DNA of 64,000 bases, taken from assembly GCA_001599715.1 (NCBI GenBank), contig BCHU01000003.1:1-64000 (forward strand). Direction: 5' to 3'. The notes below the pieces were generated by a model. That model saw nothing but the letters and a program-made list of their open reading frames with translations. It did no database searches and was not told the DNA's origin. Source of the DNA: Phaeotremella fagi (taxonomy: Eukaryota; Basidiomycota; Tremellomycetes; Tremellales; Phaeotremellaceae). A program made the position numbers and the translations under genes. Shown in pieces: positions 1 through 49,200 of the stretch; position 1 is the first letter of the stretch, and each line of letters starts with the position of its first letter.

Positions 1-61
1 CCCTAACCCCCTAACCCCCTAACCCTCTAACCCCCTAACCCACCCCTAACCCCCTAACCCC
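1..61. repeat. Telomere repeat, chromosome end
   Basis: The window opens with back-to-back CCCCTAA and CCCCCTAA units, with slight irregularities (CCCTCTAA, CCCACCCCTAA). Read on the other strand this is TTAGGGG(G), the telomere repeat reported for Cryptococcus-type basidiomycetes. The C-rich strand reads inward from base 1, as expected for a left chromosome end. The array is only about eight units, so it is probably truncated by the assembly. Confidence 0.95.
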
Positions 62-5758: not shown

Positions 5759-7998
5759 ATGCTCTCGTTAGACCTCCCTCGACGGGTATCCAACTTTGCG
5801 TGCGAGTCATGCAAGTCCAGAAAGGTGGGTAGACAAGGCAGTAATTACTCACCAGTAGCGTAAATGTGATCGAAGCAAACCCAAGTGCAGCGTATGTCCG
5901 TCACCAATTGACCAACGATCGCTAATCCAAACCCCCAGCTCTGCATCAAACACCAAGTGGATTGTGTCTATAATGCGTAAGTTGAACTTTTGCGTACTCC
6001 ACTAATCTCAGGCCTCCATCTCTCAACTATGTCGAACAGCTCGAGCAGCAACTCAGGTCATATCAACAACTTATACAGTCCAACCCCGTCAACGTGTCAA
6101 TACCGGATCTACCCTTATCCTCACCTCGACGACGTGTTAGACCCACTCAAGTATCATCCAATGCACCCAGCTACCCACCAATCCCGTTCAAGTTAATCAT
6201 GTCGAATGATCAGCGGGTAAGTCGTGGTATCCCAATAGCCAATTTACCACCCAGGTTACCATCCACGGTCCCTCCTCCTTACTCTACCTCTCCGAAACTA
6301 ACATCAACCCACTCCCTGATATCGCCTCGGACCCTGAGTCTAGTCAGTCACTTGTCTGGCCTAGTCAAGACGACGACCAACAAGAGTTCAACGAGTTGCT
6401 GGGGTTGCTGTTGGTGTCAGCAGAGCTACCACAATTCCGGCCTGGCGTCTTGCAGAAGTTCATGAACCTTCACTGGACGTGGATTCAGCCGTTATTTGGA
6501 CCAGTGTTTAGGGCCAGCTTTTCGAGCAAGTGCTGAAAGTTGTTCCGAACTCACCAAACTCGCAGGGGACATGTGTTCTCCTGATCGACAGGGTTTACAC
6601 TTTTCCGTCTTCCTCCTCCATGCCATTTGTGCTCACGCTGGAAGACGTGGTCTTGGCGACTACCACGATATTGAGCTCATCCCTGTGCCAGGTATCGACG
6701 ATCCTTTCACCCACCATGCAAGGCTTTTGGTGTCTCCAGAGATTGAACGGGGTTCAAGCACGTCTACGATCCTGGGGCTCATGCTGCTAAGTGCCAAAGA
6801 GTGCTCTCTCGGAAGAATCACGCAGTCGTGGATGTATGCGTAAGTCGTGACTAAGTTGACCCAGCTAATTCCAGTGGTATGGCCATTCGAATGCTGCAGG
6901 ACATGGGAATTGATCGCGATGGGCACGTTTCTCACAGCACAACGTTCAGTGAGGAAGAGTTGGAGGTTAGGAGTAGGACGTTCTGGTCGACCTGTGAGTG
7001 TAAAGTGACTATCTTTACTCATCCAGCGCCCAGACGTGTTCGACAAGATGAACTGCTTGTATCTGGGCCGATGTCCAATGCTCCAGCTCCGATCTGATTC
7101 ACCCAGACGAGTGTTTGGTAGGTCTATTGAACCTCTCGTAGCTGATTGTCCAGTGGATCCCAGCGGCGATAAAGAGACATGGAGGCCGTATGGGACGCTG
7201 ATGGATCAACATTTCGGTGATGACACGCTTTGTCGACGTGTCAGCACTTTTGCTGCATGTGCAGGACTTTCAGAGATCGTCAACATGATCTTGCTGTACG
7301 AGTGGGGTTTGAATATTTGGATTGCACTGACTCGTAGTGCTGGCGAAACATCTGGTCTCGAACCTTTGCTTCGGATGGAAGCCAAGCTTGCAGCATGGGA
7401 CACTGCAACACCTGCATACCTTTTACTCGACGTTGACGCTCTGCCTGACCAACCTCGTCCAAGTCACATTATCAATCTCAAGTAAGGTGTAACGTAGGGT
7501 CGAAATTGATCCCCCAGCTGCCTTCGAAACATGATCTTGATCTTGATCAATCGCCGACGAGTCGCTCAAGACTCTAGCTACCAGTCTCAGTCTAACATCA
7601 ATTCCATCATGTCGGCTGCAAATTCCATCATCAAGCTTTCCAAGTTGTCTGAAACTTTGTATGGCCTTCGAGCGGCTGTTCTCTCCCATTGCTGTGAGTC
7701 GTATCTAGGTCTTGACTAATACGTAGACTGCCTGTACGTCGCTGGGATAGCCTCTTTGGAGTGCCTAAAGTCTCTTGATACGACCCGATGGCCCACGGCT
7801 GAGGAATACGAAGCTGCTCAGGGTGTTATATGGGCAGTGGACCGATTGCAAACAGTTGCAACAAGTGTTCCTTGTGAGTTTTCAACTCGGAGCGTGGCTG
7901 ACATTCCAGTCCTTAGACAACCAGTTGAGTTTGTTAGAGACTTTGTTCAACGTATGGAACTGCATCATCTACACCCTCTCCGACAGATGCTTCGATGA
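5759..7998 (+). CDS. Zn2Cys6 fungal-specific transcription factor
   Basis: DNA-binding regulator. From ATG 5759 the frame reads MLSLDLPRRVSNFACESCKSRK; two short introns are spliced out to give CDRSKPKCSLCIKHQVDC. All six cysteines of the binuclear cluster have standard spacing (C-x2-C-x6-C-x6-C-x2-C-x6-C). Next comes a linker with a short coiled coil (YVEQLEQQLRSYQQLIQ), then the fungal-specific regulatory domain, recognisable from HFSVFLLHAICAHAGR and GLMLLSAKECSLGR followed by GMAIRMLQDMGIDRDGH. The last exon ends with TGA at 7996-7998 after a 36 bp in-frame intron. Roughly ten introns; joints around 6180-6560 are uncertain. Its place in the middle of the nitrilase, permease and amidase genes makes it the likely local regulator (inference). 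Confidence 0.88.
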
Positions 7999-8040: not shown

Positions 8041-9946
8041 CTACACCTGCCTCTCCGCCCGTTGACGTCTCCATTTTGGGCCCTTGGCAATGATCAAAAA
8101 CGGTATCGGGATACAGCAAGCTGACAGCAGGGACAGAACAACAAACGCCCAACCTGCTCCAATCTGATTGACCATTATTTGACTACAGGATTAGTGTCTG
8201 GGTGACTTGGAACTCACATCACAGAAACACCTGCGGCTCCAAGTAAACACCTGACAATGTTGTACTGCTGTATCAGAACTCATTACACTCGACCCACTCA
8301 CCCCTGCAGTAACTGACCCCGCCTGTGTTGGGTAAAGATCGACTGCGAACAGCGAGCCTATCCGTCAGTAATTATATCAAACACACTTACAGCAATTCGA
8401 GTTGGACATTCCAGCGTAACCGATGAAGAACGATAGAATACATGGCACCGCAAGAGGCGCTCGATACTGTAAACTCCACCCTGTTCCGATACAAGCTGCG
8501 TGGAAAACACTAATGTCAGCTGTACTTCTCCCACGTTCCTCACATGAAATAGTAAGGCAAGAGCGTCATACGAGTCCTCTCCAAGGGAAAATCCAACCCG
8601 ACCGCCTTCGTGTCACCAGGGTCGATCCCTGCTTTCGCTCTGGCCTTTCTAAACACCTTGTCTTGCAGTCTCCCGTTGATGACTGTTGCCATCATGGTCC
8701 CAAGTCCGTTGGGTCTGGGTGTCAGAGTTGAGTGTTTAATTGATACTCACAGGTAAGTCAAACCTAATACAATACCATCGAGACCATAGTTGTCTTTGAC
8801 TAGAGTCGACCATACAGTGCTACACATCAGCCTTAGCCTCCGTCGCGACTTACAGATTGCAATACAGCTCGGTATAGATCAACGCTCCGTACAAAAAGAT
8901 CCCACCGACCATAGGATCAAGCAGCATTGTGATTGGTCGCCAGGGCCGGAACTGTGAGGGTTAGCAGACCTCCTCAGACACTCTGCTTACGGGCTTCTTT
9001 CTGGTACGAGTGGCCATAATCTCTGGAGATGCCTCCTCTGGTCTTCCCAGCATTCGTTTACGGATTTGCCACGGAGTACAGTTGAGCACAGGTGGAGGAA
9101 TGGAGCCATTACCCACGATAGATCTAAGAGTTTCAGGCAGAAATCTGAAAGTCAGATACAATCTTTTGTTACAGCTCACAGGATGATTGGGATCAGACAT
9201 GTCCCGCAAGCGATTGCCAAGAACCAAAAGATTCCACTGCTGGTCAAGCTCACTTCGCCACCTCGACTCACCGCCACCCAACAGTCGAAATGAATATCCC
9301 ACCGATCACAGGTCCAACTGGAATCAGCTTTCTTCAGCGGACAAACTCACTAGCTGGCCCCAACTGCGCGCCGCATTGGAAAATGCCCATAAACGTCCCT
9401 CTTTCGCTCTGACTTGCGATATCAGACATCCCCCCGGATCCGATAGAGATCACAGCGGAGCCACCGGTCGCCTGGAATCAGCGTTTCAAAACTACCCAAA
9501 CCCACCTGCACGCATCTCAAGAACATCAACAGTCCAAAGCTCGACGTTGGCACCAGTGCAAGACCGATACAAGACAGAAGAAACACCGTCAGAGTGATGA
9601 TATAAACTGGTCGACAACCTCTGGCATCTGCCAGTGCTCCCCAGAAAGACGGTGTGATCCCTTGAAAGATCAAGAATACAGTCACCGAAAGTGCCATTTT
9701 CTCTGGTGTCACATTGAAGTCTGAAGCCAATGTGGGAAGAGCAGGAACGTAGATGTTGGATGATATGGGACTGGGGTCAGGAGTAGGTGAAGCTGGTACT
9801 CACGAGAAAATCCCTGCGATCATGCTCAGTGCGACGACTAGCCATTTGGTGGTTTTCGAGAAGCTCGAATAGGGGATTACCGGATGAGACAGTTTCACGG
9901 TCGCTGGCTCGTTGTTGACGTCGGGTTCACCTTTTTCTGTGTCCAT
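8041..9946 (-). CDS. MFS transporter, DHA1 drug:H+ antiporter type
   Basis: Proton-coupled membrane exporter. The start at 9946 gives MDTEKGEPDVNNEPATVKL, a cytosolic tail, then a first membrane segment (KWLVVALSMIAGIFS) joined across an intron to ASDFNVTPEKMALSVTVFLI. GALADARGCRPVYI is the loop 2-3 MFS signature. RFLPETLRSIVGNGSIPPP in the central loop is typical of quinidine-resistance/DHA1 proteins. The protein ends LIIAKGPKWRRQRAERQV with TAG at 8041-8043. It is convergent with the Zn2Cys6 gene (42 bp between stops) and divergent from the next permease (about 290 bp between starts). Likely plasma membrane; substrate unknown. Confidence 0.88.
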
Positions 9947-37620: not shown

Positions 37621-39395
37621 TCAACCCCACAAACCTCTACCCTGTTCTCTAGCTTCATGACCATTCCCAGCCATAGGCAAAGGATCCAACCCGAACCCCT
37701 GTGCATCCAACAACTCATGTTCATCAGTCGGTAACGGGGCGTGACCATCACCTCTAGCACCCAAAGGTCGACCTCTCATACCAAAGAAACCATGTTGTAG
37801 CTCCCTAGCACCCGCGATAACACCCGTGAAAGCTGATGTATAGTAGTTTAAATTCAATGGACCACTGCTGGAACGGTTGTGTAAAGTGTTTGAAGCTGTT
37901 GTTGCGAGATTATGTGGATCCGTAGGTTCGCCATCGGTGTCGATTTCAGCGTTTTCAGTTTCGCCGTTATCGACACTGGCTAAAGCAGCAGCTCTCGCAG
38001 CTTCAGATTCTCTTTGAGCCCGCCTGAGACCTCTTTCAAATCTTTTCACTCTCCACCACCCGCCAACACTTGTTAGCACCAAAAACCATCCAATCGACAT
38101 GAGCATGAAGCTGAACCATTCGTTGGCTCTACCGATCTCAGCGGCAGATGGGTATCCAAGCATCTCAGTGAGAGTGGTGTTATGAGCCATGGCATAAAGT
38201 TCAGCCTCGTGAGCGTTGTGTAACGTAACAGGGGGTGAGCCTGCTGGTTGAAGTGGATCGTTGATCGTCGCTGGCCAAGGTGAACCACCTGGTCCCCATA
38301 GAGCTGCGATAGCATTTTCGGCTTGAAGTTCGTCTTGATTAGCACCAGGTGAGGGAGCTGGATCAGATGGATCAGTGGGGTATTGACCACTGTCGATGAG
38401 ATCCACTGCACGAGATCGAATGTTGAGACCGAATTGAATGAGGGTAAGACCGAGACCGACACGGGAGCCGTATTTAGCTGCGTGCGTCGTGTGTAAAACG
38501 TAGGTGAGGAGGAAACCAACAAATTGGAACGAGACGGATACAACCACTGGATGTCAGTTGAATAGGGTTTGTGACTTACAATTCCAGAAGAAACTGAACA
38601 AATTGCCAGTGGCCATGCCGTCAATCAAGATATCATCACCATTGATTGAACTTGACAAAGGACCAAACGGTGAAGACGACGATGGCAGTACCACAGTAGT
38701 GTCCCAATAAGGAGGAACGGCGTCACGTAAAGCAGCAGCGTAAGACTACCGTTAGCCTTGTTTACATTTACTACTCACTGGAGGACCATCTTTTTGTTCA
38801 TCTTCTGGTACGTATTCAGGATTGTCAGGTCGGACGACCGTCGTCCCATCAGGTCTAGCAGCTAGATTACTGAATACACCACTCACACCACCACCTGCAC
38901 CAGCGACTCGGGTAAATGTACCTGGAGCCTGAGTCGCTCTAGGTAAAATCGACGAAGGTAAAATACCACCCAAGAAATGTCTGTTAGGATTGGGTCTGGC
39001 GATGTTGCCAGTTGGTAATTCTCCGTTTGTATTTCCAGGCGCTGGATTTTGGGATGAATAAGGTTGGAAAGGAGGGGGAGAGGATGAAGGCGGGGGGAGG
39101 AACTGGGTGTGAGCAATGTTCGTTTAGGGTGACTTACATAATTCCTGTCAAAATCGTAATCACCAGGAACCCTCTGATTCCCGTCACTTCTACCTAATAG
39201 ACCATCATTCTCGTCCTCTTCAGGACCATCAAAGGACGCATCCATCTCATCAGGATCTGGTAGACTCTGTTGACGATTGTGGGAGCCTAAACGGAAAGAT
39301 GACATAGAAGGTCGACGAAGCGAGTGAAGTGATCTCCGGGGAGTGACCGAGATAGGGGGGGAGGGCGGGTTGGAGACAGGAGTATAACGGGACAT
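37621..39395 (-). CDS. BSD2: BSD2/Ndfip-like ubiquitin-ligase adaptor
   Basis: Endosomal/Golgi membrane adaptor that brings transporters to Rsp5/NEDD4 ligases. The N-terminal exon is disordered (MSRYTPVSNPPSPPISVTPR). The central part contains GVFSNLAARPDGT and PEYVPEDEQKDGPPSYAAAL, then RDAVPPYWDTTVVLPSSSSP; PPSY is a PY motif for Rsp5 WW domains. IDGMATGNLFSFFWN is the first membrane segment. After an intron, VVSVSFQFVGFLLTYVLHTT, then HAAKYGSRVGLGLTLIQFGL, is the Ndfip signature. A third helix lies at WFSFMLMSIGWFLVLTSVGG. The long C-tail is charged. About five introns. Complete. Confidence 0.9.
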
Positions 39396-40001: not shown

Positions 40002-40589
40002 CTACTCAAAGTCAGAACGAAGCCCCAGGGGCTCACAACCACCCAACAAAACATCCTTAGTACAACAAGCACAAGCTTCCCAATTCTTCTCCTTTGAATC
40101 CCAACACCCAGCAAAATGTGTCTCATACTTAACCTCATGTTTTGGTGTCTTGGTGGTACCAGGGCAAAACGTGTTGAAATTTGAATCACGGCGTATCGAT
40201 ATCTCCCCACGTTCTTGTAATTCACCAACGAGGAGGTGTTGACACCAACTTAGATTACTTGTAAGTACACGATCCAGTTTGAATGTGTAGGACTCTTCAT
40301 TTATAGCCTGCATCTGATAGAAACATAATCTTAAACTCAACGACTGTCTATAGCAAACGAGTTGTGTTGTTACCCCATTGTCGTAAGCGGTGGCACCGGT
40401 GTAGGGGATAAAATTAGATTGAAAAACTGGATCGTAGATACAAGAATCATGATGTGGTTTTCGCTTTAGAGTTGTACAGGTTCTGAGAAGTGGCTTCCAA
40501 GTGATTCTATCTCCCTTGTAAGAGTATTCACTTCTCTCACCGTTGATGTTTGAGAGTGAGATTGTAGAATGTTCAGTTGATGTGGACAT
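40002..40589 (-). CDS. Cysteine-containing family protein, copy 1 of array
   Basis: 195 residues, single exon, function unknown. Compared with copies 2 and 3 it shares, in order: an S-x-x-N-G/C start (SLSNINGERS), ITWKPLLRTC (W-K/R-x-I/L-L-x-x-C), HHDSCIYDPVFQSNFIP (SCIYD...IP), a mid-protein Cys (LVCYRQSLSL), FCPGTTKTPKHE (CPGT), and a C-terminal block ETHFAGCWDSKEKNWEACAC, then C (ETHF-x-G with CxCC). Conserved Cys in fixed places, without a signal peptide, suggest a small metal-binding or disulfide-free intracellular domain. No known family recognised. Confidence 0.7.
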   Translation of the reverse strand: MSTSTEHSTISLSNINGERSEYSYKGDRITWKPLLRTCTTLKRKPHHDSCIYDPVFQSNFIPYTGATAYDNGVTTQLVCYRQSLSLRLCFYQMQAINEESYTFKLDRVLTSNLSWCQHLLVGELQERGEISIRRDSNFNTFCPGTTKTPKHEVKYETHFAGCWDSKEKNWEACACCTKDVLLGGCEPLGLRSDFE

Positions 40590-40876
40590 GACGAGCGAAG
40601 TTCTTTTCGATGAGGGATGTTTGAAGTTGTAAGCTGTTTAGAAAGTGGGTGAGAAGGTAAAGCAATGAAATGCACACACCATGTTGACGGCATTCCAAAT
40701 AAATACACATGTAACAAAGGTGTAGAACCCCTTCAAGAAAGGATGACGGTACTACTGTAAATGAGACGTTGTGAATAGAAGAGTCCATAGCAGTAGTAAA
40801 AATACAGCACATAATCTAAGTTACGAGGTAGCATATAATCAATTCAAAACATCCTTACTGAAGATCCGTAGCAATC

Positions 40877-41464
40877 TTAAAAATCAACCTTTCGCGGTTC
40901 AGCACGACCAGCAAATACCTCACCCGCACAAACAGCACAAGCGAACCACCTGATATCCTTCGGAACGTCATCATCGAAAACCCCACAGAAATGAGTTTCT
41001 CGAGTATCAACAGAGTGACATGAAGCTTCACTAGTTCCCGGACATTTTTCGTAAACACTAGTACCCAATTTGTAAGAACAAAACTCCATTGACTCCATAT
41101 GATCAAGTACAGCATTTTGTCTCTCAGTCTCGTCATCAGGTAAATCGAACCCCGCTTTTTCATAATCTTTGACATAGAATTTAGATAATTTCGTTTGCTT
41201 CTTGATAGATAATTTAAAGCAATCAAGATTAGTTCGTTTGTGTTTATGTTTCAGGTTGACCATTTTGTTCGTGGTTGGGATGAAACTTTTGTTGGTTATT
41301 GGATCAAAAAGACATGTCTCGTTGTGTTCACCTGGTGGGAATGGACATTCGACGAGAATCTCTTTCCAGGTGGTTTGGAAACCTTTATAAGACCTGGTCG
41401 GTCTTGTACAGTTAATGTGAGATATCGAGGTTACCTGGGGTGTAGAAATAGCTGTAGATTGCAT
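40877..41464 (-). CDS. Cysteine-containing family protein, copy 2 of array
   Basis: 195 residues, single exon, same length as copy 1. Shared landmarks: SHINCTRPTRSYKGF, TTWKEILVECPFPP, HNETCLFDPITNKSFIPTT, LDCFKLSIKKQTKL, EKCPGTSEASCHSVDTRETH, then FCGVFDDD and WFACAVCAGEVFAGRAEPR. Its C-terminal CAVC pairs with CACC in copy 1 and CSKC in copy 3. Identity is low outside these blocks, so the array is old or diverging fast. Function unknown. Confidence 0.7.
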   Translation of the reverse strand: MQSTAISTPQVTSISHINCTRPTRSYKGFQTTWKEILVECPFPPGEHNETCLFDPITNKSFIPTTNKMVNLKHKHKRTNLDCFKLSIKKQTKLSKFYVKDYEKAGFDLPDDETERQNAVLDHMESMEFCSYKLGTSVYEKCPGTSEASCHSVDTRETHFCGVFDDDVPKDIRWFACAVCAGEVFAGRAEPRKVDF

Positions 41465-41822
41465 GCTCTGTCGTCACTGTCTTCAATCTGATTGTTGATT
41501 GCTAGAGTGAACCTTTCAGGAAGGTGACGATGATTGGTCTTGGGTGACTTCTTCTACGGCTTCTGGAAGTTTTCTGTAGGTCTTCGAGCATGGCAGACTA
41601 TGTATGATTGCGGAAGGTGTTTGGAGAAGTTGTTGCTAACAGATACTGTACGAAGACATCGATAACCAAGAGTCTGACGCATTTGTTTTCCAAATTGGCA
41701 TGCTTCGGGATCATTACCAATTGCATTACTTCCAAATAAAACTACGAACAAACTACTGAAATCAAATACAAATCACCTTTATCCCCTCCACACCCTGAAC
41801 TTGTTACCCACTTTCTCCATTA
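41465..41822. other. Intergenic within the array
   Basis: Holds a 65-codon minus-strand frame (41554-41751) with several Cys but none of the array's landmarks. It might be a remnant; not supported as a gene. Confidence 0.35.
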
Positions 41823-42425
41823 TCATTTAAAAGCTTTAGCAAGATTTGTCTCTAAACATTTTGAGCAATATTGGAACATTTTCTTTCGAGTTGTCCCAGG
41901 AACGGAGAACAACATATGAGTGTGATTGCCTTCAACACAATGACCGGGACCTATCTCGTTGGTACCATAACAAACGTCGACATTTGATCTTGTATAGCTC
42001 TGCTTACGGTACTGATCGAAAGTTTTATAGCGATAATGGTCTAAACGATTGTTATCGAAACTGTGGTAACCGTCTGAATAACCATCAACATGTGGAATTT
42101 CCATAAAACTTTCTATCTCTGGTATGGTGATTGATTTACTTTTACATTCGAAATTGAACTCTATGATTGAATCGTCTTGTTGAGTCTCGGTATAGATTAT
42201 TGTCTTTGGAGGGATGTAGTATTTATTACTGAGTTCATCGTAGATACATGATTTATGGTGTGCAGTTGCGTGACAAACACCAAGGATTGGTCTCCATTCT
42301 GTTTCGATTGAATTGATAGTAGGAGTTTCTCGTTTACCATTGACGTGAGAGAGGGATTCGGCTTGTTTAGTAGGAGTTGACATTTCATCAGAATCAGAGC
42401 ATGACATTTCATCAGAGGATGACAT
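41823..42425 (-). CDS. Cysteine-containing family protein, copy 3 of array
   Basis: 200 residues, single exon. A Ser/Asp-rich lead (MSSSDEMSCSDSDEMSTPTK) precedes the shared blocks SLSHVNGKRETPTI, TEWRPILGVCHATAH, HHKSCIYDELSNKYYIPP and FECKSKSITIPEI, then the Cys-rich end GPGHCVEGNHTHMLFSVPGT and FQYCSKCLETNLAKAFK. CPGT is replaced by V-P-G-T and the order of the end blocks differs slightly from copies 1-2. The SCIYD and SHVNG motifs make kinship clear. Function unknown. Confidence 0.65.
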   Translation of the reverse strand: MSSSDEMSCSDSDEMSTPTKQAESLSHVNGKRETPTINSIETEWRPILGVCHATAHHKSCIYDELSNKYYIPPKTIIYTETQQDDSIIEFNFECKSKSITIPEIESFMEIPHVDGYSDGYHSFDNNRLDHYRYKTFDQYRKQSYTRSNVDVCYGTNEIGPGHCVEGNHTHMLFSVPGTTRKKMFQYCSKCLETNLAKAFK

Positions 42426-42821
42426 TATGTTTATGACAGTGGACCGAAGATTGATTGAAATTCGACTGAGCTGTCCTTGTTGTGGGTAGCGAGAAAAGAA
42501 GGAAAAGAAAGAGGAGACAATGTGAAGTCAACTCCCCTTTTCATGCCAAAAATAATCTCAAGAAGGCGTTGGGGCTGTTCGTATAAGATCCTTTGATGTT
42601 TGCAAGAGAAATGATATCATTGTAAGAGTGCTTTTGTCAAAGGTTTGACGAAGTTGATCAAAAGAGGGACTTGTTACGAAGAGCGCCAATGAAGGGGGGT
42701 CTGAAAATGCGTTCTCACTGCACTGCATGTATGGTGGACCAGAAGAAGATCGTCCTACACTGTCTGTCCCTCAATGTAAGCGTTATTCATATCAAATCTA
42801 ATTCTACAGAAAATGAAGATC
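42426..42821. other. Intergenic within the array
   Basis: Promoter region of copy 3; no further gene or repeat recognised. Confidence 0.4.
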
Positions 42822-43187
42822 TCAGACGGACTCCTTTAAATCATCGTTAACAACTATACCGCTTTCCGAACCAGATTTCCCAGCGACAAACGTGATCTGA
42901 TTATCCCAGCTCATCAACTTATCTTTGACTTTCATTGTTTCTAGTTCGAACCGAATTCTCTCCCAATGAGGGACACCACTATTCTCATAAGAGGTATAAT
43001 CTTTAAAATAACTTTTCAAGTAACATTTGAAATTCATACAACTTTTATCTGGGAGTTGGAGATGATCGGAAGTTTCGGGGATAGTGTTTTCGTTGTCTAT
43101 GCATGATTGAGTGTGGGGTTTGGCTGTGCATATCTTGTTGGATTGGGTGTCGGATTGAGTGGGTAGTGATGTTTGGACTTGTGACAT
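42822..43187 (-). CDS. Short, divergent fourth member of the cysteine-containing array
   Basis: 121 residues from MSQVQTSLPTQSDTQSNK (an upstream in-frame Met at 43211 is possible). KPHTQSCIDNENTIPETSD aligns with the HHKSCIYD...IP block of its neighbours, and CMNFKCYLKSYFKDYTSYEN with the mid-Cys region of copy 2 (LDCFKLS...SKFYVKDYEKAG). The W-K-x-L-L block before it and the C-terminal ETHF/CxxC block are missing. It may be a truncated copy, a relic, or a shorter functional variant. Confidence 0.5.
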   Translation of the reverse strand: MSQVQTSLPTQSDTQSNKICTAKPHTQSCIDNENTIPETSDHLQLPDKSCMNFKCYLKSYFKDYTSYENSGVPHWERIRFELETMKVKDKLMSWDNQITFVAGKSGSESGIVVNDDLKESV

Positions 43188-43660: not shown

Positions 43661-45461
43661 ATGTCTACCTCTATCTCTTCCGAATTCGATATCCCTGCTA
43701 GACCAAGTAACGTCGGTATTCTTGGTTTAGAGATGTATTTCCCCAAGAGGGTAGGTGGTCCTTTTGTGTCTTCCATCGCATCTCTATCGTGCACTAACAC
43801 ACCCAGTGTATCTCTGAAGACGCCCTTGAAGACTTTGACGGTGTCGCCAAGGGAAAATACACCATTGGTTTAGGTCAAAAATTCATGGCTTTCACCGATG
43901 ACAAGTGAGTAGTTCGTTTTGATTTCAACTGACACAACCTAGGGAGGACATCAACTCCGTAGCTCTCACCACAGTCTCCTCCCTCCTCTCGAAATACAAC
44001 ATCGACCCTAAATCAATTGGTCGTCTCGACGTCGGAACCGAAACCCTTATCGATAAATCCAAAGCAACCAAAACCCTGCTCATGAACCTCTTCGCTGAAT
44101 CAGGTAACCACGATATCGAGGGTATCGACAACAAGAACGCCTGTTACGGTTCCACAGCAGCTCTGTTCAATTGTGTCAACTGGATCCAATCTGAATCTTG
44201 GGATGGTAGAAACGCTATTGTTTTCTGTGGTGATATCGCTATTTACAAGGAGGGAAGTGCCAGACCTGTCGGTGGGATGGGTGCTTGTGCCATGTTGATT
44301 GGTCCAGATGCTCCTTTGGTCATCGAACGTGAGTTGGGATATGTTTCTCGGGCTGATACGTAGCCGTTCACGGTACATACATTGCCAACACTTGGGATTT
44401 CTATAAACCAGATCTTTCAGCTGAATACGTGAGTGAATGATTGATCTACGAACTGACGTCGTAGCCAACCGTCGACGGTCCATGGACAATCGTAGCTTAC
44501 CTCGGAGCTTTGGACGCAGCATACACCTCTTACGTTGAAAAATCAGCTAAATCAAAAGCCAGAGCTGCCAAAAAACTCTCCCTCGCCAATGTATCAGCCG
44601 CAGTCTCAGAAGTCGCTTCATCAGTCGTTGGTGAAGTCACCAAATTGGTCAATGGAAATGGTACCAACGGACACGCCGAGGTTCAACCTGAATCTGGTAT
44701 CGCTGAATTCGACTATGTCTGTCTCCACAGTCCATACGGTAAATTGGTTCAAAAAGGTCACGCAAGAATGTTCTACAACGTGAGTAGCGACTTTTATTCA
44801 TGAATCAATCTAACAATTCAAAAATAGGACTACATCCGTAACCCATCTCATCCATCTTTCGCCAACGTTCCATCAACCATCAACACCGATAAAACTAAAA
44901 CCTACACTGATAAAGTTGTTGAGAAGACTTTCTTGGGTGTTGCAGCTGCTCATTATGATTCTGCCATCGTTCCAGGAACAGATTGTGTCAAGAGATGCGG
45001 TAACATGTACACTGCTAGTTTGTACGGTGCTCTAGCCAGTGTTTTGGCTAGTGCCCCAGAGGGTCTTCAGGTAAGTCATGGATGTTTTGGGATGCCTTCT
45101 GATCCCACATAGACCGGTAAACGAATCGGAATGTACGCTTTCGGGTCTGGATGTGCTGCTTCATTCTACGCTTTGAGAGTCAACGGATCAACTAAAGATA
45201 TCGCTACCAAACTTCAACTTAAAGAGAGATTAGCTTCAATGGACGTCGTCCCATGTGAAGACTATGTTACAGCTCTCAAGGTGGGTCACACCCGGTATCA
45301 ATTACATTCGTTGACTGACCCAAACTACCTAGCTTCGTGAGGATAACCATAACGCTGTTAAATACAGTCCACAAGGATCATTAGACAACATCTGGCCCGG
45401 AAGTTACTACCTCGAAGGAGTTGATGAACTCTACAGAAGAACTTATTTGACCAAGGCGTAA
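43661..45461 (+). CDS. ERG13: HMG-CoA synthase
   Basis: Condenses acetyl-CoA and acetoacetyl-CoA to HMG-CoA, the second step of the mevalonate/ergosterol pathway. [20 protein letters not shown], then [20 protein letters not shown], starts the protein. [20 protein letters not shown] contains the catalytic Cys, and [20 protein letters not shown] the active-site His region. [20 protein letters not shown] and [19 protein letters not shown] are conserved C-terminal motifs. Between [20 protein letters not shown] and FDYVCLHSP there is an Ala/Ser/Gly-rich stretch of roughly 50 residues ([34 protein letters not shown]) longer than in the yeast enzyme. Six or seven introns; complete. Confidence 0.96.
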
Positions 45462-46295: not shown

Positions 46296-49200
46296 ATGCC
46301 GAGTCCTTCACCCACACCTTTCCCCAGAAATGATTCTTCAAGTTCAGCTCCACTCACGACCAATCCAATTTCCATCCCCTCGAACCGATCCTCTTCACCT
46401 AGATTACCACGAGCCAAAGCAAAAGGTAAGGAGAAAGAACGAGATCGACCAAGTTTCGTTAGAGAGGTTGGAAGTGCGACTATATCTTTGAGACAGAGTG
46501 CTGTGGAACAGTTGGTCAGTGAAGATGAAGATTCTATGGATTTACCTAGGGCTGGTTCAGGATCTGGATCAGTTTCTAGATCGAGATCCTCAAGAATCCA
46601 ACAAATAGATACAAACCCTAATCCTGGGTCCTCCAACCCAGCTAAAACCGGTTTACTACCTTCACCGTTTTCAAGAGTTTCATCCAATGCACCAGATCCA
46701 ATCGATGAGAACGAAACGACTTCTCCTACGACCATACTCCAACCCCGACCTAAACCCTATCATTCCAAACGAATCAGAAGTAATTCAATGCTACTCCCCC
46801 AACACCCCCTCAATCAAAATGAAAGATCCTTCTTCCTCCCCCATTACTCTCTGGATCAAAAATTCTCTAAAGGCGGTAAAAGTCCAGGTGAATCACCCAA
46901 CGGCTCAGGGATAACCCGATTAGATCTAGAATTGGGATTAGGCAATTCGTTCGATCTATCATTTGGCGAAGCGATGAGAACCGGTCAAGTGTCCCGAGAG
47001 ATTTCGTTGCCCAGAGAAGCTTTACGGGCTTTGAACGAAGTCAAGGAGAACTCGGATTTACGGGGTAGTGGGAATAAAAATGGTAGGAAGGGGAGTATGG
47101 GGATGGGTTTGTTTCGTGAATCAAGAAAAGTTTCGACTACCGGTGGAAAATCTGATCGAAACGATACTATAGACGAAGAGATTATTTCTTCACCTGCACG
47201 ACGTAAGTCAGGTGGTAAATCTAATTTGGAAGGGGATATCGTTTCTAGTCCTCTCCGTCGGTCGACGATTAAAGGTGATTCACCGTCACCTACCAAATCA
47301 CGCCGATCTTCGCATCCTATCTTATCACTCGATACGTTTGGTACCAGCACGAGCACAGATTGGAGTTCAGAATCCGAGTCTGAATCTGAATCTGAGTCTG
47401 GATCTGACTTATCAGACGGATCCATAAAATCAACCGCATCAACTTCGTCAGCTGAATCTGAACGTCTACGAGTTCCACTTGAAAGATTTAACCATGCTGT
47501 CGGAGGTCATTCGAGTATTTACAAATTCACCCATCGAATCCTGTGTAAACCATTGGTTAGCCATGAGAATCTGTTCTACGAGGAGGTCGAGAAACTCGCT
47601 CCTGCTTTGTTATCGTTTATCCCGAAATATCTCGGTGTCATGTTGGTCAACTATCGTAAACAGCAACAACAATCTTTTGGGAGTGGATTCATCGAAGGTG
47701 AAGGTGAAACTGTTGGTGAAGATTCGGTTGAAATGAGTCCTGGATCTTCGCATCCTACTACACCATCTGTTCGACCTGGATTACATAAATCCGCAACGAG
47801 TTATACGAGTCAACAAGAGATTCCAGAGGTTGCTTTGGATTTCAATCGACATGTAGTTCCAGATTGGTTATTCAGAGATCGAGAAGAGAGGGGTAGAAGT
47901 AGCGAAGATAGAAATACTCATCGGACACTTCGACCTTCGTCCGCTAGATCACAAGAGTTTCATGGGATCCATCAAAAGGACAGAGATCCATCACCTGGAT
48001 CGTCGTACGGTCGATCAAGTTATTTGTCCAGTTCCCCTGGGTTCAGGATGGGTAATTCCTCACCTGCAGTTGATGTACCAGCTTCAATAAGAGAACATGA
48101 ACATGAAGAACCATCAACCCCCGCGCCTTCCCCTTCACCAAGACAAATTGGACTTCATCACACGATCTCATCGCCTTCTTTCCCACATAGGAAATTGGAT
48201 GGGACTTGGTCAGAAACGAAAAGTGGTTATTCGACTCCACAATTTGGTGGGACGGGTTCGACGACTGTAAATACTAAACTTAAGGATCACGTTTTTAACA
48301 CTATCTTGAAGAGGTTGAAGAAACGGGGTCTACATCCTCATAGACATGACGAGGATGCTGACGATGAAACTGAAGTTGACAACGACGTTGACGAGGATAA
48401 TCATCGATTCGAAAACGGTACATCCGAGGGACATGGTCGGACAAACAGTGGTGAAAGGAAAGATAGATGTGGACATAAGAAACGTGAATCAAAGAACAAG
48501 GATGTACGAAGGACGCAAAGTGATGTCCATCTTGATGAGAAACGGGAGAGCAGACGTCAAAGTCGAAACTCGTTAACAAGGGAACGCGAGGAATCACCCG
48601 AACCTGGAGTTTTCTCTTTTGAAGATGACGAGAGTGGATTGACTATGAGGAGTAGAAACAAGTTGGGTGGGATTCAACCTTTATCGAAAGTCGAATCTCC
48701 GACTCCTACACCTTCCGTGTATGATACCAAAGAATTGAAGAGTACTCTTCCGGAAACGGAGGCAACTCTGGAGGAACCACTGACATTGGTACCTACCGCC
48801 CCGTCAACACCTAATCCAATCAACGGGAATGACACTAGATCGGAATTGTTCATTTTTATGGAAGACCTAACTGGTAGACTTAAACATCCTTGTGTACTTG
48901 ATTTGAAAATGGGGACGAGACAATATGGTTATGACGCTACTCCACTCAAGAAACGTAGTCAAAGGAAGAAATGTGATGCGACTACGAGTAGGACTTTGGG
49001 TGTTCGGATGTGTGGAATGCAGGTAGGTCGTGGGGTTTAATGAGTTGCTGATAATTAGGTATACAACACTGTTCAAGGGACTTTTGACTCGATCAACAAA
49101 TATCGTGGACGTGAAGTCAAGACTGAAGAGTTTTCGGATATTCTTCAGAAATTCCTTGATTCAGGTGAACATCTCTTGATTCAACATATCCCGATGATCA

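What the first reader, a model, noticed from the sequence alone, without database searches (positions are those of the whole stretch)
40002..43187. Tandem array of an unrecognised cysteine-containing protein family
Four minus-strand genes, three of nearly equal length (195, 195, 200 residues), share spaced blocks: S-x-x-N-G/C, W-K/R-x-I/L-L-x-x-C, S/T-C-I/L-x-D...IP, P-G-T, and a C-terminal C-x-x-C-like motif. They match no family I know and lack signal peptides. The fourth lacks both end blocks. Fast-diverging tandem copies with fixed Cys suggest a new intracellular, perhaps metal-binding, family.
Basis: partly seen in the sequence, partly recalled or inferred. Interest (0 to 1): 0.75.

Follow-up and report, generated by a model that had tools for sequence, protein, structure and literature searches.

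The report
Small orphan fungal Cys/His protein family
Near one chromosome end of a basidiomycete yeast lie three intact and one shortened copy of a small protein with a regularly kept set of cysteines and histidines, with a fourth intact copy farther along; nothing like it turned up in the databases searched, and it may well hold zinc, but what it does is unknown.

Summary
A (195 aa), B (195) and C (200) are uninterrupted ORFs at the stated places and true homologues (A-B E 1e-17; left-out profile scores 59-80 bits against at most 12.5 in shuffles; E included). D (121 aa) is a weak, shortened relative (18 bits; 0 of 5000 shuffles reach it). A fourth intact copy, E (201 aa), lies on the same chromosome about 255 kb away, so the family is not purely tandem; C and E are sisters. 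Six own-genome searches showed no other convincing copy. Nineteen columns are invariant in A, B, C, E, among them six Cys and three His. No Pfam or NCBIfam model reaches its cut-off, the best PDB-sequence match has E 0.12, and no relative was found in 5.8 billion proteins; but a control listed no named Tremellomycete and not the window's own amidase, so relatives may simply not be held. Best reading: a real, perhaps Kwoniella-restricted, intracellular family whose conserved ends bind structural zinc around a variable middle. Family: near certain. Zinc: about even odds. Function: unknown. A modest find.

The parts
40002..40589 (-). copy A, 195 aa, single ORF
   Evidence: leave-out profile 59.4 bits vs max 9.5 in 1000 shuffles
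40877..41464 (-). copy B, 195 aa, single ORF; closest to A (30% id, E 1e-17)
   Evidence: 79.6 bits vs max 9.6
41823..42425 (-). copy C, 200 aa, single ORF; its third in-frame ATG at 42383 lines up with the starts of A and E; closest to the dispersed copy E
   Evidence: 78.5 bits vs max 10.6
42822..43187 (-). copy D, 121 aa, shortened: keeps C..H-x3-C-I..IP..C, lacks the W block and the whole C-terminal C..H..TH..C-x2-C block
40440..40454 (-). copy A, H46-x3-C50 block (the stretch around it is 22 of 26 bases alike with that of C)
   Evidence: positions; DNA repeat D1
40062..40073 (-). copy A, C173-x2-C176
41312..41326 (-). copy B, H47-x3-C51
40928..40939 (-). copy B, C176-x2-C179
42246..42260 (-). 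copy C, H56-x3-C60
41856..41867 (-). copy C, C187-x2-C190

Best explanation
A real protein family of about 22-23 kDa, restricted (as far as could be seen) to this fungus or its near kin, with four intact genes (A, B, C in the array, E about 255 kb away) and one shortened copy (D). Shown: common ancestry, single uninterrupted ORFs, nine Cys/His among 19 invariant positions, variable middle, no hydrophobic signal or membrane stretch. Inferred: the proteins stay in the cytosol or nucleus; the conserved N-terminal block (C40, H47, C51, C82 in B) and C-terminal block (C141, H150, H158, C176, C179) give two zinc half-sites or sites that fold the two ends into one small domain, with the C-x2-C at the start of the last helix; the variable middle (about residues 64-140) or the domain surface gives each copy its own partner. 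On this reading the protein is a zinc-stabilised binding module, not an enzyme.
For: Homology and chance controls. Invariant set and Cys/His enrichment (9 of 19 invariant columns against 16-17 Cys/His of 168 ungapped columns, hypergeometric P 3e-6 to 6e-6). Three invariant His beside the Cys fit metal ligands better than disulfides. Better-predicted ends of the B model (10-residue blocks 21-40 and 161-190 at mean pLDDT 64-72) place two strands and then a helix that begins at C176-x2-C179; the C model, though poor, gives the same order at its end. No signal or membrane stretch by hydropathy. Two deep lineages, (A,B) and (C,E), support 99.1/100.
Against: No metal data. Cys, Trp and His are generally slow to change, so enrichment among invariant columns does not by itself show zinc. 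Nine ligands do not divide evenly into two tetrahedral sites; one (C82 or one of the His) would be idle. Both models are poor overall (mean pLDDT 47.4 and 35.5), so the strand-strand-helix end is weak. No expression evidence. Restriction to near kin is untested, since the control listed no named Tremellomycete.
Confidence: 0.5

Rival explanations
1. The family is a far-diverged branch of a known zinc fold or metal nuclease (treble clef, RING-like or beta-beta-alpha metal finger), perhaps once carried by a mobile element, no longer recognisable by sequence.
For: Strand-strand-helix with C-x2-C at the helix start in the better end of the B model; invariant T-H at the start of the first of these strands; copies are single ORFs.
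Against: No Pfam or NCBIfam model at its cut-off and no PDB sequence match better than E 0.12. No CPxCG knuckle shared by the copies. No long repeats or alike flanks found in the array or between it and the E locus; no search made specially for transposons.
Confidence: 0.2
2. Secreted or otherwise oxidised protein whose fixed Cys form disulfides; the export signal is missed because of a wrong start or an unseen first exon.
For: Even number (six) of invariant Cys.
Against: No hydrophobic N-terminus in A, B, C, E; A and E start at the same aligned Met, which is C's third in-frame Met; three invariant His are not explained.
Confidence: 0.13
3. Old duplicates under weak constraint that are being lost one by one; no present function worth naming.
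For: D is shortened; only four intact copies were found; the copies have lower GC than the window (0.378-0.422 against 0.452) and than eight other ORFs compared (0.43-0.499).
Against: Four frames of 195-201 codons open, 19 invariant positions kept, second codon positions more alike than third in all six pairs, although synonymous sites are saturated or nearly so.
Confidence: 0.12
4. Chance ORFs with look-alike blocks.
For: None found for A, B, C, E; D alone is not found by a single-sequence search.
Confidence: 0.01

Closest known systems
Treble-clef zinc fingers (definition as in PMC4999995, passages seen)
   Same: Predicted end of B: beta-hairpin then helix with C-x2-C at its start; Cys/His upstream that could complete a site.
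   Different: No CPxCG knuckle; upstream ligands are C-x8/9-H-x6/7-H; no profile match; zinc not shown; model of low confidence.
Lineage-restricted (orphan) paralogous gene families of fungi (general knowledge; paper search listings gave no description of this one)
   Same: Few copies, short single-ORF genes, deep divergence, no recognisable domain, one array near a chromosome end.
   Different: Carries a regular invariant Cys/His set; one copy lies well inside the chromosome.
MINA-1 (6fbl), best PDB sequence match of the family profile
   Same: A 74-position stretch with H..C and IP in register.
   Different: E 0.12, chance level; no reason to take it as kin.

Membership tests
one paralogous family A, B, C, E | significant mutual similarity beyond shuffled sequences | tested here: met
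one paralogous family A, B, C, E | shared invariant Cys/His framework | tested here: met
   C, H, C, C, C, H, H, C, C in all four
copy D as member | profile score above shuffles and above the other window ORFs apart from A, B, C | tested here: met
   E 2e-4 (next 0.71); 0 of 5000 shuffles
copy D as member | complete Cys/His framework | tested here: not met
   C-terminal block and W block missing; single-sequence search finds none of the other copies
treble-clef zinc finger | zinc knuckle (CPxCG type) giving two ligands | tested here: not met
   no C-x2-C besides the C-terminal one is shared by the four copies; a permuted or variant knuckle is not excluded
treble-clef zinc finger | beta-hairpin and helix whose start gives two ligands | tested here: inconclusive
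   order seen in both models, confidence low
treble-clef zinc finger | bound zinc | not testable with these tools
   needs purified protein
any Pfam or NCBIfam family | score above the curated cut-off | tested here: not met
   Pfam; NCBIfam (a library for bacteria and archaea); best Pfam row DUF6760 on D, E 0.002, 18.6 bits against cut-off 27
secreted Cys-rich protein | N-terminal signal peptide | tested here: not met
   hydropathy only; no trained predictor available

The most novel reading that the evidence does not exclude
A protein fold found only in one yeast lineage, in which the two ends of the chain close on shared zinc sites around a freely varying middle, used as an interchangeable recognition module, for example in conflict within the genome or between mating strains, which would explain deep divergence with fixed ligands.
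Probability: 0.08. Interest if true: 0.6.

Novelty: new member of a known kind. Interest (0 to 1): 0.3.

Why it matters
If the family is truly limited to one genus it is a small, clean case for asking where new zinc-binding proteins come from and what lineage-restricted genes do: four intact copies, an invariant ligand set, and an array bounded by recognisable genes (a NEDD4/Bsd2-family gene and HMG-CoA synthase), so the origin can be read from synteny in related species. As it stands it is one more lineage-restricted family.

Tried and rejected
Homologue searches: B alone against the protein database, 30 candidates, none at E<=10; alignment A2 of A, B, C, E, 702 candidates, none; A2 against genome contigs, a prokaryote collection (22 pattern stretches, none a relative) and viral contigs (47 stretches, none). 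Control with the window's amidase: 3111 proteins at E<=1e-30 among the 7999 candidates scored, best 120 listed; the named rows are other fungi (by my knowledge of the names Agaricomycotina, Pucciniomycotina and one ascomycete), 11 of the 120 rows have no name, no Cryptococcus, Kwoniella or Tremella is among the names, and the window's own protein is not listed. So the empty results say little about Tremellomycetes.

Weak matches looked at and dropped: D against C13:660305 (E 0.023), a frame of 677 codons where the family profile finds nothing better than E 2.1 in the 9 kb around; C against C1:216117 (E 0.29, three stops inside) where the profile gives at best E 0.36. Pfam Microtub_bd on A (E 0.029), DUF6760 on D (E 0.002) and TFA2_Winged_2 on E (E 0.2) are below their cut-offs. 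PHROGs rows (E 0.06-0.3) are of unknown function and near chance level; PADLOC gave none.

An internal repeat (N-half like C-half) was tested and rejected: 123 of 200 column shuffles score as high. Kinship to the second orphan family beside E was tested and not found (hhalign probability 0.1%). Shared promoter or flank DNA between copies: nothing beyond an 11-base match. dN/dS between copies: not informative (one pair has pS above 0.75, the other five have dS 1.3-5.2). RNA families and tRNAs in the window: none. Fold search was not accepted, so no fold comparison was made.

Full report
What is there. The minus strand of 40002-43187 carries three ORFs of 195, 195 and 200 codons (A, B, C) and one of 121 codons (D), all in one direction. 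They are single frames without interruption, with spacers of 287, 358 and 396 bases. A, B and C are homologues beyond doubt: A-B 30% identity over about 180 residues, E 1e-17; B-C E 3e-7. Searching the own genome (22.6 Mb, 24 contigs) with A, B, C, D, with the newly found E and with the family consensus gives one more intact copy, E, 201 aa, at C3:298615-299220 on the plus strand, and no other convincing one. These searches are by single sequences in six frames, so copies split by introns or far diverged could be missed.

Strength of the family. With each copy scored by a profile of the other three, A, B, C and E get 59.4, 79.6, 78.5 and 66.6 bits; the best of 1000 shuffles of each gets 9.5, 9.6, 10.6 and 12.5. 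D gets 18.1 bits with a four-copy profile; none of 5000 shuffles reaches this (best 12.6), and it ranks first among the window's other frames (E 2e-4; next 0.71). D as a query finds none of the others. It keeps C..H-x3-C-I..IP..C and lacks the W block and the whole C-terminal block.

Conserved framework. Nineteen columns are the same in A, B, C and E, in B numbering T8 S13 S15 N18 R21 W33 C40 H47 C51 D54 I62 P63 C82 C141 H150 T157 H158 C176 C179. Nine of the 19 are Cys or His, against 16-17 Cys/His among the 168 ungapped columns of each copy (hypergeometric P 3e-6 to 6e-6). The other Cys (five of eleven in A, four of ten in B, two of eight in C, two of eight in E) are not invariant. The middle, about residues 64-140 of B, has no invariant position but C82. 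P-G-T after the fixed Cys belongs to A and B only (C has Y-G-T, E has M-R-S).

History. The four copies form two pairs, (A,B) and (C,E), with support 99.1 (SH-aLRT) and 100 (ultrafast bootstrap); D cannot be placed (21.3/48). The copy in the chromosome interior is therefore sister to C, and the split between the pairs is older than the C-E split. Nei-Gojobori pN is 0.49-0.57 and pS 0.62-0.76, so synonymous change is saturated or nearly so and no honest dN/dS can be given; second positions are more alike than third in all six pairs, which fits constraint on the protein. There is almost no DNA-level likeness: the longest repeat reported in the array is 22 of 26 bases at the H-x-x-S-C-I-Y-D block of A and C, and the upstream flanks are unlike.

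Setting. The window begins with CCCTAACCCCC-type telomere repeats and the far end of the same contig ends with GGTTAGGGGG repeats, so C3 (1.97 Mb) runs from telomere to telomere, though it holds at least one run of N (L024), and the array lies 40 kb from its left end. It sits between a NEDD4/Bsd2-family gene (37621-38547, minus) and HMG-CoA synthase on the plus strand (Pfam matches at 44082-44363 and 44510-44803; the start near 43.65 kb is my reading of the sequence, and that first piece gave no Pfam match). [quoted passage not shown] I infer a Kwoniella-like tremellalean yeast; the species was not tested.

Is it known? No Pfam or NCBIfam model reaches its cut-off for any copy, no PHROGs or PADLOC model is convincing (D was not scanned there), the family profile has no PDB sequence match better than E 0.12, and neither B alone nor the alignment has a match at E<=10 in 5.8 billion proteins. 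A control with the window's amidase shows that many fungi are in that database, but none of the named rows of the 120 listed is a Tremellomycete by my knowledge of the names, 11 rows are unnamed, and the window's own protein is not listed. So the family is unknown to the libraries searched; whether close relatives have it could not be seen. Paper searches (listings only, apart from passages of PMC11185503, of PMC8022950 and of PMC4999995) showed no description of such a family; they were keyword searches and cannot rule one out.

Structure. AlphaFold2 on B with A and C gave mean pLDDT 47.4, pTM 0.39; blocks 21-40 and 161-190 average 64-72, and there the order is strand 158-162, strand 173-176, helix 177-184, with C176 and C179 at the helix start. 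With C as the first sequence the model is worse (35.5, pTM 0.20) but ends in the same order. A hairpin followed by a helix that starts with two ligands is one half of a treble clef as defined in PMC4999995; the other half, a CPxCG knuckle, is missing. This is a hint, not a result.

How it most likely works. Six fixed Cys together with three fixed His in a protein without signal or membrane stretch point to structural zinc rather than disulfides. The simplest picture is that the conserved N- and C-terminal blocks fold together around one or two zinc ions and that the variable middle, or the surface of that domain, gives each copy its own partner. Only the sequence facts are shown; location, metal and partners are inferred. 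I put about even odds on the zinc reading. The rivals are a far-diverged known zinc fold or metal nuclease, a secreted disulfide protein, and decaying duplicates.

Judgement. What it adds up to is one more lineage-restricted paralogous family, with a regular Cys/His framework. That is of modest interest until orthologues or a structure are at hand.

Noticed in passing
L024 (C3:293001-303000), 6573-7343 and 8077-8913, minus: Right beside copy E lies a second small tandem pair of single-ORF genes (256 and 278 aa, 23% identity over 277 aligned columns, E 4e-9) with no Pfam match above cut-off; a search with the 256-aa protein finds only its partner in the genome; no kinship to the Cys/His family seen.
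   Followed up: partly
window 1-60 and right end of C3 (L025): Telomere repeats at both ends: C3 (1,969,235 bases) runs from telomere to telomere, and the window is its left end; a run of N lies in C3 near L024:680-880.
   Followed up: yes
window 42383-42425: The start of copy C holds short repeated units, each beginning ATGTCA, giving 14 extra N-terminal residues; the third ATG lines up with the starts of A and E.
   Followed up: no
window 46296-49040, plus: Start of an inositol polyphosphate kinase gene (Pfam IPK at residues 852-910) with a long region before it that looks low in complexity.
   Followed up: no
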